Below are positions 5,412-55,423 of a stretch of DNA of 64,000 nucleotides, piece after piece. The DNA is from Picosynechococcus sp. PCC 7003 (lineage in GTDB: Bacteria; Cyanobacteriota; Cyanobacteriia; Cyanobacteriales; MRBY01), in contig NZ_CP016474.1 in the NCBI RefSeq assembly GCF_001693255.1, positions 1,568,661 through 1,632,660 on the forward strand, written 5' to 3'. The first letter of the stretch is position 1. Each line of letters opens with the position of its first letter. Below the pieces are notes generated by a model. The model saw only the letters and a list, made by a program, of their open reading frames with translations. It was not told the DNA's origin and made no database searches. A program made the position numbers and the translations under genes.

Positions 5412-5759
5412 CTACGAAATATCGTCGTTTTCAAGCATAAGTTGAACGCAAGTTTGGAGAGAATTTAATTTTGTTGTCATAATGCTCCAAACGATTTTGG
5501 TATTCACACGAAAATATGTATGGGCAATAATATCCCTCAAGCCGGCAACCTTCCTCCATTCAATTTGTGGATATTGCTCACGTAGAGAATCGGGAATCTG
5601 TTTTGTTGCTTCGCCAATAATTTGCAAATTGTGGGCGATCGCATCAAGGGTATGACTGTCTTCACAAAGCTCTTCATAGGTTAAATTCTCAGCATAATTT
5701 TGAATTTTTGTAATGCTCTTGAGAATATCGGTGAGATAGAGACGAAGACTACGGGACAT
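5412..5759 (-). CDS. hepT: HepT-type toxin (DUF86, HEPN ribonuclease family)
   Basis: Small helical protein of the HEPN/DUF86 family, the toxin half of MntA/HepT modules. Its 115 residues contain the catalytic-type R-x4-H motif (R75 to H80) followed by the characteristic HxY (Y82). In studied members the toxin is an RNase or RNA-targeting factor, neutralised when the partner nucleotidyltransferase AMPylates a Tyr in this motif. The start overlaps the end of mntA by 11 bases, so the pair is probably translationally coupled. It is read opposite to the neighbouring ATPase gene. Confidence 0.9.
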   Translation of the reverse strand: MSRSLRLYLTDILKSITKIQNYAENLTYEELCEDSHTLDAIAHNLQIIGEATKQIPDSLREQYPQIEWRKVAGLRDIIAHTYFRVNTKIVWSIMTTKLNSLQTCVQLMLENDDIS

Positions 5760-6132: not shown

Positions 6133-8958
6133 TTATTTCTTCGTTAATAGCGGTTTGAGGAATTTACCTGTGTAGGATTCTTTGACCTTAATCAAATCTT
6201 CAGGTGTGCCCGTTGCAATAATCTCTCCGCCGCGATCGCCACCCTCTGGCCCTAGATCGATTAGCCAATCACTACAGCGAATCACATCCAAATTATGCTC
6301 AATGACGAGGACAGAATTTCCTTTGTCAACAAGCCGTTGCAACACATTTAATAGATGATGCACATCATAGAAAGACAGTCCTGTGGTCGGTTCGTCAATC
6401 AAATAAAGGGTTTTGCCCGTCGCCCGTCGCGACAGTTCCGAAGCCAGTTTTACCCGTTGTGCTTCCCCACCGGAGAGGGTTGGTGCCGGTTGCCCCAAGC
6501 GAATATAACCCAAGCCCACATCAACCAGGGTTTGTAGTCGATTTGCCGCCGTTGTGATATTTTCAAACACGCCCAACGCCTCTTCCACCGTCATATTCAA
6601 CACATCCGAAATGGAATAACCCTTAAATTTCACCTGAAGGGTTTCGCGGTTGTATCTTGCCCCCTTGCACACCTCACATTGCACATAAACATCCGGCAAG
6701 AAATTCATCTCAATCACATTCACCCCTTGACCACTGCACGCCTCGCAACGTCCCCCTTTTACGTTGAAGGAAAATCGCCCTTTTTTGTAACCTCTCGTTT
6801 TCGCTTCCACCGTTTCGGCAAATAGATTCCGAATGGGGTCAAAAATTCCGGTGTATGTGGCGGGATTCGAGCGGGGGGTTCTACCAATTGGCGATTGATC
6901 AATGACGATCACTTTATCAATGGACTTTAACCCTTTGACACCGCCCAACTCCTTTGGAAAAGGCACATTCCGATTCAGGCTATGTTGCAACGCCGGATAA
7001 AGCAATTCATTCATCAGGGTGGATTTGCCGGAACCGGACACCCCAGTCACGGACACCAATTTTCCGAGGGGAATTTCTACGGTGATATTTTTGAGGTTAT
7101 TTTTGGTGCAATTTTCAAGGCGTAATCTGCCGCCGTTGCCTTCCCGTCGCTCTGGGGGCGTTTCGATGGTACGTCTGCCGGAGAGATAAGCACTGGTGAG
7201 GGATTGTTTATTTTTGAGAAATTTGTCAAAGCTGCCCTGAAAGACGATTTCACCGCCATGCACCCCTGCTTTTGGCCCAATATCAACGATGTGATCGGCG
7301 GTGCGAATGGTGTCCTCGTCATGTTCTACGACGATCAGTGTATTGCCGAGGTCACGCAATTTTTCTAGGGTTTGCAACAATCGCTCATTATCTCGCTGGT
7401 GTAGCCCGATGCTGGGTTCGTCGAGTACGTATAAAACCCCTGTTAAGCCGGCACCGATCTGGGTGGCAAGGCGAATGCGCTGGGCTTCTCCCCCTGAGAG
7501 GGTCATAGCGGCACGGTCGAGGGTCAGGTAATCTAAGCCGACATCGAGCAAAAAATTTAATCTGGCGCGAATTTCTTTTAGGGCTAATTCGCCGATCAGT
7601 TTTTGGCGATCGCTTAACTCTAGATTTTCCACCCGTTCGAGGCAGTCCCGAATGGCAACGCTGGTCAATTCATCGATATTATATTGTCCTAAACGCACCG
7701 ACAAAGCTTCGGGTTTAAGTCGTTTTCCTTGACAGACTTCGCAGGGTTGATTAATTAAATATTTTTCAAGTTTATCTTTAATGGCATCGGAATTTGTGTC
7801 TTCATAATTGCGTTCTAATAGTTTTAAAATGCCGGAATAATGGCGATAGTAACCTTTGCCACCCCCATAGCGGGATTCTTCCTCAAACCAAATGGGTTCT
7901 TCTGTGCCGTGGAGTAAAATTTTTTGGTGTTCTTTACTGAGTTTTTCCCACGGAGTTTGGATCTCAAAACCAAAGTTTTGTCCGAGGTTATATAACAACG
8001 ATAAATAGTAGGTATTTTCCTTTTCTGACCAAGGGGCGATCGCCGCATAGAGGGGTTGTTTCGGATCGGGAATCACGAGATCAGGGGAAAAACGCCGATG
8101 ACTGCCTAACCCATGACAGGCGGGACAAGCGCCATAGGGGGAGTTAAAGGAAAACAAACGGGGGGATAATTCTTCCATCACCGCACCATGTTCGGGGCAG
8201 GCGAAATTTTCGGAAAAAATAATTTGTTCACCCGTCTCAATTAAATCGACGATCGCCGTCCCTTCAGAATGCTTTAAACAGGTGCTTAAAGAATCCACTA
8301 ATCGCTCTTGAATGCCCTCTTTTTTCACCAATCGATCCACCACAATTTCGATGGTGTGATAGTGATTTTTATTGAGGGAAATATTGTCACTGAGTTCGCG
8401 GGTTTCGCCATTAATTCTCACCCGTGCAAACCCTTCGGCGGCAATACTAGAAAGGGTCTTTTTGTGGGTTCCCTTTTGGTGCCGCACAATGGGGGAAAGT
8501 AACTGAAATTTGGTGCGCTCCGGCAATGCCAACACCCGATCACACATCTCATCGATGGTCTGGGGCGCAATCGGGCGATCGCAGTGGGGACAGTGGGGTT
8601 CACCCGCCCGCCCGAAGAGTAACCGCAGATAATCGGCAATTTCCGTGACGGTTCCCACCGTGGAACGGGGGTTATGGGAAGTGGATTTTTGGTCAATGGA
8701 GATCGCCGGACTCAGCCCTTCAATGGCATCCACATCGGGTTTATCCAACTGCCCTAAAAACTGCCGTGCGTAAGCACTGAGGGATTCTACATAACGGCGC
8801 TGTCCCTCCGCAAAAATCGTGTCAAACGCCAAGGACGACTTCCCCGAACCGGACACCCCCGTAAACACAATCAACTGGTTACGCGGCAAATCGAGATCCA
8901 CATTTTTTAAGTTGTGCTGTCTTGCGCCACGGATGCGGATTTGGTCGGATTTGCTCAT
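6133..8958 (-). CDS. uvrA: Excinuclease ABC subunit UvrA
   Basis: Damage-recognition ATPase of nucleotide excision repair, acting with UvrB and UvrC. It has two ABC-type ATPase halves. The first Walker A is GVSGSGKS at 34-41, a CPHC zinc-binding pair lies in the first insertion, and the first LSGGEAQR signature follows; a second Walker A, the CEAC...CEVC zinc module and a second LSGGEAQRVKL make up the C-terminal half. From the ATG at 8958 (941 residues) the protein begins with the usual IRIRGARQHNLKN. In-frame ATGs at 8973 and 8997 are possible; the latter has an AGG 10 bases upstream. It is complete, with no sign of damage. Confidence 0.97.
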   Translation of the reverse strand: MSKSDQIRIRGARQHNLKNVDLDLPRNQLIVFTGVSGSGKSSLAFDTIFAEGQRRYVESLSAYARQFLGQLDKPDVDAIEGLSPAISIDQKSTSHNPRSTVGTVTEIADYLRLLFGRAGEPHCPHCDRPIAPQTIDEMCDRVLALPERTKFQLLSPIVRHQKGTHKKTLSSIAAEGFARVRINGETRELSDNISLNKNHYHTIEIVVDRLVKKEGIQERLVDSLSTCLKHSEGTAIVDLIETGEQIIFSENFACPEHGAVMEELSPRLFSFNSPYGACPACHGLGSHRRFSPDLVIPDPKQPLYAAIAPWSEKENTYYLSLLYNLGQNFGFEIQTPWEKLSKEHQKILLHGTEEPIWFEEESRYGGGKGYYRHYSGILKLLERNYEDTNSDAIKDKLEKYLINQPCEVCQGKRLKPEALSVRLGQYNIDELTSVAIRDCLERVENLELSDRQKLIGELALKEIRARLNFLLDVGLDYLTLDRAAMTLSGGEAQRIRLATQIGAGLTGVLYVLDEPSIGLHQRDNERLLQTLEKLRDLGNTLIVVEHDEDTIRTADHIVDIGPKAGVHGGEIVFQGSFDKFLKNKQSLTSAYLSGRRTIETPPERREGNGGRLRLENCTKNNLKNITVEIPLGKLVSVTGVSGSGKSTLMNELLYPALQHSLNRNVPFPKELGGVKGLKSIDKVIVIDQSPIGRTPRSNPATYTGIFDPIRNLFAETVEAKTRGYKKGRFSFNVKGGRCEACSGQGVNVIEMNFLPDVYVQCEVCKGARYNRETLQVKFKGYSISDVLNMTVEEALGVFENITTAANRLQTLVDVGLGYIRLGQPAPTLSGGEAQRVKLASELSRRATGKTLYLIDEPTTGLSFYDVHHLLNVLQRLVDKGNSVLVIEHNLDVIRCSDWLIDLGPEGGDRGGEIIATGTPEDLIKVKESYTGKFLKPLLTKK

Positions 8959-52938: not shown

Positions 52939-54030
52939 ATGACTTTGCAACGCACGCCCCTCCATGATCTTGCCATTGCAGCTGGTGCCAAATTTGTGCC
53001 CTTTTCCGGTTGGGAGATGGCCGTGCAATACAAAGGCTTAAAGGTGGAGCATCAGGCGGTGCGCACAGAAGCGGGGATGTTTGATATTTCCCACATGGGC
53101 AAGTTTCAGTTGGCTGGGGAAAACCTCATCGCAGCAATGCAAAAACTGGTGCCTTCAAATCTGGCGCGACTCGACCCAGGCCAAGCGCAATATACAGTGC
53201 TGCTCAATAACCATGGCGGTATCATCGATGACGTGATTTATTATCACCAGGGCGATCGCCAGGGCTTTTTGATTGTGAATGCGGCCACCACCCAGAAGGA
53301 TTGGGATTGGTTGACGGGCCATTTATCAGACCAGGGGATCACCTTAACCGATGTCTCCCAAGAAAATATCTTGCTGGCGATCCAAGGCCCAAAGGCAGAG
53401 GAAATCTTGCAACCTGTGGTGGAAAATTTAGACTTGGCGACCCTAAAGCTGTTTAACCACGGCCAAGGGCAAATCTTTGGGGAAACGGCCTTTATTGCGC
53501 GAACTGGCTACACCGGCGAGGATGGTTTTGAGGTGATGGTCGCACCCATGGCCGGGAAAAAACTTTGGGACTCCTTAATCGAGGCGGGGGTGATGCCCTG
53601 TGGTTTGGGGGCACGGGATACGCTGCGACTGGAGGCCGGGTTACACCTCTATGGTCAGGATATGGATGACGACACAACCCCCCTGGAAGCGGGTTTGGGG
53701 TGGCTGATCCACTGGCAAGAAAAAGACGAGTTTATCGCAAAAGATATTTTGCAGACCCAAAAAGCAGTAGGCATTCAACGGCGTTTAGTGGGCCTAGAGA
53801 TGCAAGGGCGTGGTATCGCTCGCCACGACTATCCTGTTCTTGTGAATGGTGAAGCAGTGGGCCTTGTCACCAGCGGGACGATGTCCCCCACCCTCGAAAA
53901 GGCGATCGCCTTAGCTTATCTACCACCAGCATTGGGCAAAGTCGGTCAGGCGGTCACCGTCGAAATTCGGGGCAAACAGTACCTAGCCCAGGTAGTGAAA
54001 AAACCTTTTTATCGTGCAGACAAAAAATAG
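52939..54030 (+). CDS. gcvT: Aminomethyltransferase (glycine cleavage T protein)
   Basis: T protein of the glycine cleavage system, important in photorespiration. It transfers the aminomethyl carbon to tetrahydrofolate and releases ammonia. The 363-residue protein has PFSGWEMAVQYKG, AGMFDISHMGKF, DDVIYY, the folate-domain RTGYTGEDGFEVM, LGARDTLRLEAGLHLYGQD and SGTMSPTLEKAIALAYLP. All family blocks are present, including the catalytic Asp block near VLLNNHGGIIDD. It stands alone, with the second toxin-antitoxin pair inserted after it. Confidence 0.95.
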   Translation: MTLQRTPLHDLAIAAGAKFVPFSGWEMAVQYKGLKVEHQAVRTEAGMFDISHMGKFQLAGENLIAAMQKLVPSNLARLDPGQAQYTVLLNNHGGIIDDVIYYHQGDRQGFLIVNAATTQKDWDWLTGHLSDQGITLTDVSQENILLAIQGPKAEEILQPVVENLDLATLKLFNHGQGQIFGETAFIARTGYTGEDGFEVMVAPMAGKKLWDSLIEAGVMPCGLGARDTLRLEAGLHLYGQDMDDDTTPLEAGLGWLIHWQEKDEFIAKDILQTQKAVGIQRRLVGLEMQGRGIARHDYPVLVNGEAVGLVTSGTMSPTLEKAIALAYLPPALGKVGQAVTVEIRGKQYLAQVVKKPFYRADKK

Positions 54031-54037
54031 CTGAACC

Positions 54038-54063
54038 GTTAGCGATATTTTTTTAGCAGATTT
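54038..54063. repeat. Left direct repeat (copy of the terD 3' end)
   Basis: These 26 bases match 54814-54839 at 24 positions and in the same orientation. On the minus strand this copy spells the same seven terD C-terminal residues, NLLKKYR, and TAA, with only synonymous changes, but a stop lies five codons further upstream, so no gene is attached. Together with the right copy it brackets mntA-hepT. Confidence 0.7.
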
Positions 54064-54105
54064 GTGATCTTAGTTTAAAAAATGATTCAAAAATGACCAA
54101 ATATT

Positions 54106-54426
54106 ATGGGTAGCCAAGTTCCTTTAATTGATACTCTAACAATAGAACTTCTTAATGCCCTTTGCCAACAATGGAAAATTCAAGAGTTCTCAGTTTTTGG
54201 GTCTATTGTACAAGGAGGTTTTAGTCAAGAAAGCGATGTTGATTGCTTGGTAAGATTTTCAGAAGATGCTGAATGGGATTTACTGGATGTTATCCAACTG
54301 AAACAGAAACTTTCTGATCTTTTTGGTAGACCAGTTGATCTTATTGAACAAGAAAGCATTTCTAATCCTTTCATTCTAAGATCAATAAAAGAGAATCATC
54401 GAGTTCTTTACTCCAGCCATGGATAG
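54106..54426 (+). CDS. mntA: MntA-type minimal nucleotidyltransferase antitoxin (second module)
   Basis: Minimal nucleotidyltransferase of 106 residues with the GS-x10-DxD active site (G32, S33, D44, D46) and a later VDLIEQ strand. It is expected to inactivate the HepT toxin encoded next. The sequence is clearly different from the mntA at 5749-6054 (SVFGSIVQGGFSQESDVD against ALFGSTARDEATIDSDLD), so the two modules came separately rather than by local duplication. Its stop overlaps hepT by eight bases. The gene is AT-rich and contains no HIP1 site. The start is ATG at 54106. Confidence 0.9.
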   Translation: MGSQVPLIDTLTIELLNALCQQWKIQEFSVFGSIVQGGFSQESDVDCLVRFSEDAEWDLLDVIQLKQKLSDLFGRPVDLIEQESISNPFILRSIKENHRVLYSSHG

Positions 54427-54757
54427 AAATTATGCTCACCTGTGGGATATGTATGAGGCATGCAGACAAATTGAAAAATTCACTCAAGGCTTAACCTGGG
54501 AAGAGTATCGTCAAAATGAATTGGTGCAAAGTGCTACAGAAAGACAATTGGAGATCCTAGGAGAAGCCGCCCGGAGAGTATCTGTAGAGTTTCAAAAAAG
54601 TCATCCTGGAATTCCATGGAGTGCACTTATCGGTCAGCGAAATGTTATTTCCCATCAATATGAAAAAGTCAGTCACAAACGAATTTGGTTAACAACACAA
54701 AAATCCCTCCCGCCACTAATGGCAGATCTAAAAAAGTTAATTCCCAACTTGGAATAA
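54419..54757 (+). CDS. hepT: HepT-type toxin (DUF86, second module)
   Basis: A 112-residue HEPN/DUF86 protein with the R-x4-H motif (R74 to H79) and the HxY tyrosine (Y81) that is the AMPylation target region in studied HepT proteins. It overlaps mntA by eight bases. Its sequence differs from the HepT at 5412-5759, and the gene order (mntA first) is the same. Its stop is 56 bases from the right direct repeat, which is the end of terD. Confidence 0.9.
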   Translation: MDRNYAHLWDMYEACRQIEKFTQGLTWEEYRQNELVQSATERQLEILGEAARRVSVEFQKSHPGIPWSALIGQRNVISHQYEKVSHKRIWLTTQKSLPPLMADLKKLIPNLE

Positions 54758-54813
54758 ACGGGCAATCACACCAGTTGATGTATTTTTTGTTGGTAGCCTA
54801 TGAAAACTAGGCA

Positions 54814-54839
54814 GTTAGCGATATTTTTTGAGTAGATTT
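54814..54839. repeat. Right direct repeat (functional 3' end of terD)
   Basis: Second copy of the 26-base repeat at 54038-54063, differing at two positions. Here it is the real last codons and stop of terD (minus strand). The two copies are 776 bases apart and flank only the mntA-hepT pair. Confidence 0.7.
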
Positions 54840-55423
54840 TCAGAATCCTGGGGGTCGAGGCCATCACCGAGGGCCGTCATCGCCCAGCCGTTTTCCTCCC
54901 GACGTAACTCGGCCATCAACATCCCGGTTTTGCCTTGGTAGGTTTCGCCGGATAGTTTGTAATGGGCGATCTCTTGGTTGTTACTCAGGTCAACGAGGCG
55001 CACAAAGGCATTGCTGATCTGGCTAAATTCCTGGCCCCGTTGTCTGCCTTGGTAAATGGTGACAGTAAACAGCAGACTTTGGATCGCCGCAGGGACTTGC
55101 TCTAAATCGACAAAAATTTGTTCATCATCTCCTTCTCCCGCGCCGGTGAGGTTGTCCCCTTGGTGGGCGATCGCCCCGGATTGGTGATGGAGATTGGCAT
55201 AGTACACAAAATCACTGGCGCTATTGAGCTTCCCTTGGGAATCTAAGCACAGCACCCCGGAGTCGAGGTCAATGCTGCCTGCGGGCTTTTTAAAGATGCC
55301 GAGGAAACCGCCCCCTGAGTTACTGGTTGCCATGTCCCAGCCGAGGCCCAGCATCACTTTTTTGAGGCCGGGGGCTTCTTTTTTGAGGGAAATGCGGTTG
55401 CCTTTTTTCAGTTGAATTGCCAT
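54815..55423 (-). CDS. TerD-family protein
   Basis: Calcium-binding stress protein of the TerD family, linked to tellurite resistance and general stress in other bacteria. It has 202 residues: QLKKGNRISLKKEAPGLKKVMLGLGWD, then SIDLDSGVLCLDSQGK, the acidic block GDNLTGAGEGDDEQIFVDLEQVP and the AFVRLVDLSNNQEIAHYKLSGE core. The usual acidic calcium-site residues (DLDSG and GEGDDE) are present. It lies 21 bases downstream of prfC. Other ter genes are not in view. Its last codons are duplicated beyond the mntA-hepT pair. Confidence 0.9.
   Translation of the reverse strand: MAIQLKKGNRISLKKEAPGLKKVMLGLGWDMATSNSGGGFLGIFKKPAGSIDLDSGVLCLDSQGKLNSASDFVYYANLHHQSGAIAHQGDNLTGAGEGDDEQIFVDLEQVPAAIQSLLFTVTIYQGRQRGQEFSQISNAFVRLVDLSNNQEIAHYKLSGETYQGKTGMLMAELRREENGWAMTALGDGLDPQDSENLLKKYR

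What the first reader, a model, noticed from the sequence alone, without database searches (positions are those of the whole stretch)
54038..54839. Second MntA/HepT module bracketed by a direct repeat of the terD 3' coding end, as in an attachment site
Seen: a 26-base direct repeat (24 matches) at 54038-54063 and 54814-54839 flanks only mntA-hepT. The right copy is the real end of terD; the left copy spells the same last seven residues and stop with synonymous differences but has no gene attached. Known: elements that integrate into the 3' end of a gene often bring a replacement 3' end, leaving a direct repeat. Inference: this toxin-antitoxin pair may have entered as a very small element at a terD 3' site, or a tandem terD copy was lost around it. 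No integrase is present.
Basis: partly seen in the sequence, partly recalled or inferred. Interest (0 to 1): 0.72.

Follow-up and report, generated by a model that had tools for sequence, protein, structure and literature searches.

The report
Toxin–antitoxin cassette between duplicated gene ends
A two-gene poison-and-antidote pair has inserted, alone, beside the terD gene of a marine cyanobacterium and a second copy of that gene's tail now lies on its far side; the same kind of scar brackets about one in ten such pairs in other cyanobacteria.

Summary
A 26-nt direct repeat (24/26) brackets a 750-nt insert that holds only an intact MntA/HepT toxin–antitoxin operon. The right copy is the true 3' end of terD; the left copy spells the same seven residues plus stop and has no gene attached. 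Picosynechococcus sp. PCC 7117 carries the empty site: gcvT, 11 nt, one terD end, no module.

The 'attachment site' reading is not supported: no integrase, no terminal inverted repeats, and no such repeat at this genome's other modules. In a survey of 109 cyanobacterial MntA/HepT modules, 12 (11%) sit between non-dispersed direct repeats of 24–326 nt that copy whatever lies next door (gene 3' ends, 5' ends, intergenic DNA). Single ORFs give 1.1%, ORF pairs 2.8%, random positions 0.3%; ParE/RelE modules give 8%.

Coding parts of the copies differ mostly at synonymous sites (pooled pN/pS 0.30), favouring import of an already diverged flank by homologous recombination over a target duplication made on the spot. 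I propose that bare addiction cassettes enter by insertion-duplication and persist because deletion between the repeats is punished; that last step is inferred.

The parts
52939..54030 (+). gcvT (aminomethyltransferase), left native flank
   Evidence: ORF; Pfam GCV_T 6e-88
54038..54063 (.). left, detached repeat copy; reads NLLKKYR* on the minus strand
54064..54813 (.). insert absent from PCC 7117 (750 nt); insert plus one repeat copy = 776 nt
   Evidence: against window sequence
54106..54426 (+). mntA, antitoxin; GSIVQGGFSQESDVD fits GSX10DXD
   Evidence: Pfam NTP_transf_2 5e-17; motif as in PMC7641770
54419..54757 (+). hepT, RNase toxin; RNVISHQY fits RX4HXY; overlaps mntA by 8 nt
   Evidence: Pfam HepT-like 1.3e-24
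54814..54839 (.). right repeat copy: the real 3' end of terD and 1 nt beyond its stop
54815..55423 (-). terD, right native flank
   Evidence: Pfam TerD 9e-64

Best explanation
A bare MntA/HepT toxin-antitoxin cassette entered the gcvT-terD junction after this lineage split from PCC 7117 (shown by the empty site). It came in as an insertion-duplication: incoming DNA carried the module next to a copy of the terD end and recombined with the resident terD end by one crossover or by alternative pairing, for example during natural transformation, giving flank-repeat-module-repeat-flank (inferred). Deletion by recombination between the two copies would remove the module, but losing the antitoxin while HepT persists would be punished, so the arrangement is kept while most repeat-flanked DNA is not (inferred). 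The same anatomy recurs around MntA/HepT and ParE/RelE modules in other cyanobacteria (shown).
For: Empty site with one terD end in PCC 7117. The insert holds essentially only the operon. Survey: 12/109 HepT modules have non-dispersed flanking direct repeats against 5/475 single ORFs (p=3e-6), 3/106 ORF pairs (p=0.017) and 3/901 random positions (p=5e-10); ParE 6/75. Clear cases with copied gene ends: L220 (3' end of a 298-aa gene), L221 (speB 3' end, 140 nt, 137 identical), L225 (3' end of one gene plus 5' end of the next, about 320 nt), L274, L282, L115 (nifS-like 5' end), L234 (cmr4-like 5' end). Coding parts of the copies: 44 synonymous and 38 non-synonymous differences, pooled pN/pS 0.30, below neutral (p=8e-8) and below a mixture expected for duplication followed by free decay of one copy (p=0.002). 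L260/L261: two genomes share the insertion; the module differs at 1/703 and the inner repeat copy at 1/228, the outer copy at 11/228, and near-identity stops inside the outer repeats. Similar modules at different loci share DNA only from about the mntA start to the hepT stop in most pairs. Transformation-driven duplication between repeats is documented in pneumococcus (PMC3784515).
Against: In the window only two differences separate the copies, and each copy carries one of them as a derived base relative to NIES-970, which an exact duplication followed by drift explains equally well. No circular or linear donor was found. The pooled pN/pS rests on 11 short stretches, is uneven (L260 alone is above 1), and the mixture test assumes omega 0.15 for the attached copy. 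About 90% of modules show no repeat. The size-matched ORF-pair control is only moderately lower, and not significantly so when dispersed repeats are included (p=0.065) or for ParE modules (p=0.11). In L260/L261 the sequence left of the outer repeat is also about 99% identical, so the tract boundary is not clean.
Confidence: 0.45

Rival explanations
1. Target-site duplication: the module was captured as a linear fragment at a staggered break or pair of offset nicks; filling in copied the target, giving repeats whose length equals the offset.
For: Repeat length varies from locus to locus (24-326 nt); in the window each copy has one derived base relative to NIES-970, as expected for an exact copy that drifted; L234 copies are 99% and L221 copies 98% identical.
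Against: Pooled pN/pS of the coding copies is 0.30, lower than expected if one copy decays freely; offsets of 200-300 nt are long; the outer and inner copies in L260/L261 have different histories.
Confidence: 0.3
2. Site-specific integration: a tyrosine recombinase supplied in trans integrated a 776-nt circle into an attachment core at the terD 3' end.
For: 26-nt near-identical core at a gene 3' end, with a replacement 3' end that keeps the protein sequence; single core in the empty site.
Against: No integrase in the insert; no other module of the genome uses such a core; repeats elsewhere are unrelated in sequence and length and often not at 3' ends; no viral contig carries the repeat.
Confidence: 0.1
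3. Remnant: a larger repeat-flanked island once sat here and decayed until only the addicting pair was left.
For: Addiction would preserve the operon while the rest is lost; L221 still carries a truncated TPR gene beside its module inside the repeats.
Against: No trace of other genes in the 750 nt; most bracketed modules in the survey are equally bare, although the survey only looked within 300 nt of the module.
Confidence: 0.1
4. Loss of a full tandem terD copy around an older module.
For: The left copy ends exactly like terD.
Against: PCC 7117 has one terD end and no module; nothing of terD beyond 26 nt remains on the left.
Confidence: 0.03

Closest known systems
HepT/MntA (HEPN/MNT, type VII) toxin–antitoxin
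   Same: Pfam families, gene order, overlap, GSX10DXD and RX4HXY motifs
   Different: Nothing unusual in the proteins; the setting between duplicated flanks is what was not described in the papers found
Integrative elements that replace the 3' end of a target gene
   Same: Direct repeat made of the gene's 3' coding end, one copy per side
   Different: No integrase, 750 nt only, repeats not shared between insertions
Merodiploids / insertion-duplications from transformation (PMC3784515)
   Same: Duplicated resident segment made by recombination with incoming DNA
   Different: Those are about 100-900 kb and experimental; here the duplicated segment is tens to hundreds of nt

Membership tests
HepT/MntA toxin–antitoxin | PF01934 toxin beside PF01909 antitoxin | tested here: met
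HepT/MntA toxin–antitoxin | RX4HXY in HepT and GSX10DXD in MntA | tested here: met
   RNVISHQY and GSIVQGGFSQESDVD in the translations; definition from PMC7641770
HepT/MntA toxin–antitoxin | AMPylation of HepT neutralises toxicity | not testable with these tools
   needs expression
Integrase-borne integrative element | recombinase gene in the element | tested here: not met
   only mntA and hepT in 54064-54813
Integrase-borne integrative element | direct repeat core flanking, single in the empty site | tested here: met
Integrase-borne integrative element | same core used by related insertions | tested here: not met
   other modules have none or unrelated repeats
Transposon or IS derivative | terminal inverted repeats and fixed-length target duplication | tested here: not met
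   no inverted pair at the insert ends; repeat length varies widely

The most novel reading that the evidence does not exclude
Bare toxin-antitoxin operons are a general class of recombinase-free mobile cassette in cyanobacteria: they move with a piece of the target's own flank, insert by homologous recombination that duplicates it, and lock the unstable duplication in place by addiction.
Probability: 0.3. Interest if true: 0.78.

Novelty: new variant of a known kind. Interest (0 to 1): 0.55.

Why it matters
How chromosomal toxin–antitoxin pairs spread without transposases is an old open question: they are called mobile because of their patchy distribution (PMC2701414), not because a route was seen. 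An insertion with a precise empty site, and a countable signature (flank duplication) around about a tenth of such modules, makes the route testable. It also suggests a role for addiction on chromosomes: keeping repeat-flanked DNA from being deleted.

Tried and rejected
Plasmid (blastn) search for the window stretch: no match; HepT relatives on plasmids are at most about 40% identical. Viral contigs: no HepT relative, no copy of the repeat. Rfam: nothing. Promoter and terminator scans: nothing clearly above shuffles. Repeats around the other modules of this genome: none at the window's strength; the module at C1:966909 is also absent from PCC 7117 but replaced a stretch of intergenic DNA without a repeat. 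Dispersed repeats (L199, L110 and others) were counted apart so that they do not inflate the survey. A whole-genome search for the 26-mer in the own genome was not run. Literature searches for toxin–antitoxin modules between direct repeats or target duplications found no description of this pattern; the library lacks most subscription papers.

Full report
What is there. The window lies in a Picosynechococcus chromosome (G000, contig 1, 1568661-1632660). Between the copies are mntA and hepT, overlapping by 8 nt, both with Pfam matches and with the motifs that define the functional pair (PMC7641770). Both copies encode NLLKKYR* on the minus strand and differ at two synonymous sites.

Empty site. 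In PCC 7117 (L032 and L003; the two flanks about 90% identical) gcvT is followed by 11 nt and then a single terD end, with no module. NIES-970 has gcvT and terD apart. Thus the module plus one repeat copy, 776 nt, was gained by this lineage, or less likely lost cleanly by PCC 7117. Compared with NIES-970, each copy in the window has one derived base, so the window alone cannot tell whether the copies were identical at birth.

Is it unusual? Five other HepT modules of the genome lack a comparable repeat. But a scan of HepT loci in the genus turned up a second clear case, L090/L221: a module between two 140-nt copies (137 identical) of the 3' end of a speB-like gene. I therefore collected 100 regions, mostly about 9 kb, around HepT genes of the order, found 112 modules including those of the window's genus and tested them against controls.

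Survey. With both copies within 300 nt of the module, at least 24 nt and 82% identity, and excluding sequence repeated elsewhere in the fetched part of the same genome: HepT 12/109, ParE/RelE 6/75, single ORFs 5/475, ORF pairs 3/106, random positions 3/901 (looser versions). L260 and L261 are one orthologous insertion, so HepT has 11 independent events. Several bracketed 'control' ORFs are themselves toxin genes or likely partners (PIN, PemK/MazF, DUF2442), so the controls are conservative. The ORF-pair comparison is the weakest (p=0.017, or 0.065 with dispersed repeats counted; for ParE 0.11).

What the repeats are. They are partial copies of neighbouring sequence: gene 3' ends (window, L220, L221, L274, L282), 5' ends (L115, L234, L260) or both with the intergenic region (L225). 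Lengths run from 24 to 326 nt. A fixed attachment core or a transposase footprint does not fit.

How the copies relate. Over 326 codons of duplicated coding sequence, differences between copies are 44 synonymous and 38 non-synonymous (pN/pS 0.30). A detached copy decaying freely would give more amino-acid changes. This favours copies that had been under selection in different genomes before they were brought together. In L260/L261 the module and the inner repeat copy are nearly identical between two genomes while the outer copies differ, and the near-identical tract ends inside the outer repeats; sequence further left is also similar, so this is suggestive only. That locus also holds two different toxin modules in a row, separated and bounded by three copies of the same repeat.

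Unit of movement. Most pairs of similar modules at different sites share DNA from about the mntA start to the hepT stop and little more. The thing that spreads is the operon.

Mechanism. I favour insertion-duplication by homologous recombination with incoming DNA, followed by persistence through addiction. Shown: insertion, duplication, bareness, recurrence, enrichment, constrained differences. Inferred: the donor molecule, the crossover, and the protective role of addiction. Transformation-driven duplication between repeats is known in pneumococcus (PMC3784515); its relevance to cyanobacteria is inference. Target duplication at a staggered break remains a serious rival, and the two could act at different loci.

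Novelty. The proteins are an ordinary member of a known family. The association of toxin–antitoxin operons with flank duplications was not found in the papers searched, which is only weak evidence of novelty.

Noticed in passing
window 5442-5726 (minus): The window's other HepT gene (C1:1574102-1574386) has a relative at the corresponding place in NIES-970, but PCC 7117 has about 0.7 kb of other sequence there instead of 2.5 kb; no bracketing repeat.
   Followed up: partly
L104 7814-8566 (G000:C1, about 966813-967565): Another bare MntA/HepT pair absent from PCC 7117; it replaces intergenic DNA and has no direct repeat.
   Followed up: partly
L260 3880-6148: Two different toxin modules (MntA/HepT, then a PIN toxin pair) in a row, separated and bounded by three copies of one repeat; a second 90-94% copy of the PIN pair lies at 7817-8380.
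   Followed up: partly
L234 4429-5294: MntA/HepT inserted inside what looks like a type III CRISPR (Cmr) operon between 91-nt repeats that are 99% identical.
   Followed up: no
L237 4067-5145 and L275 4291-5370: Two copies of one MntA/HepT module in the same genome, 94.6% identical over 1084 nt, at distant sites.
   Followed up: no
L221 5160-5444: A truncated TPR-repeat gene lies inside the speB-end repeats next to the module, as if part of the incoming DNA.
   Followed up: no
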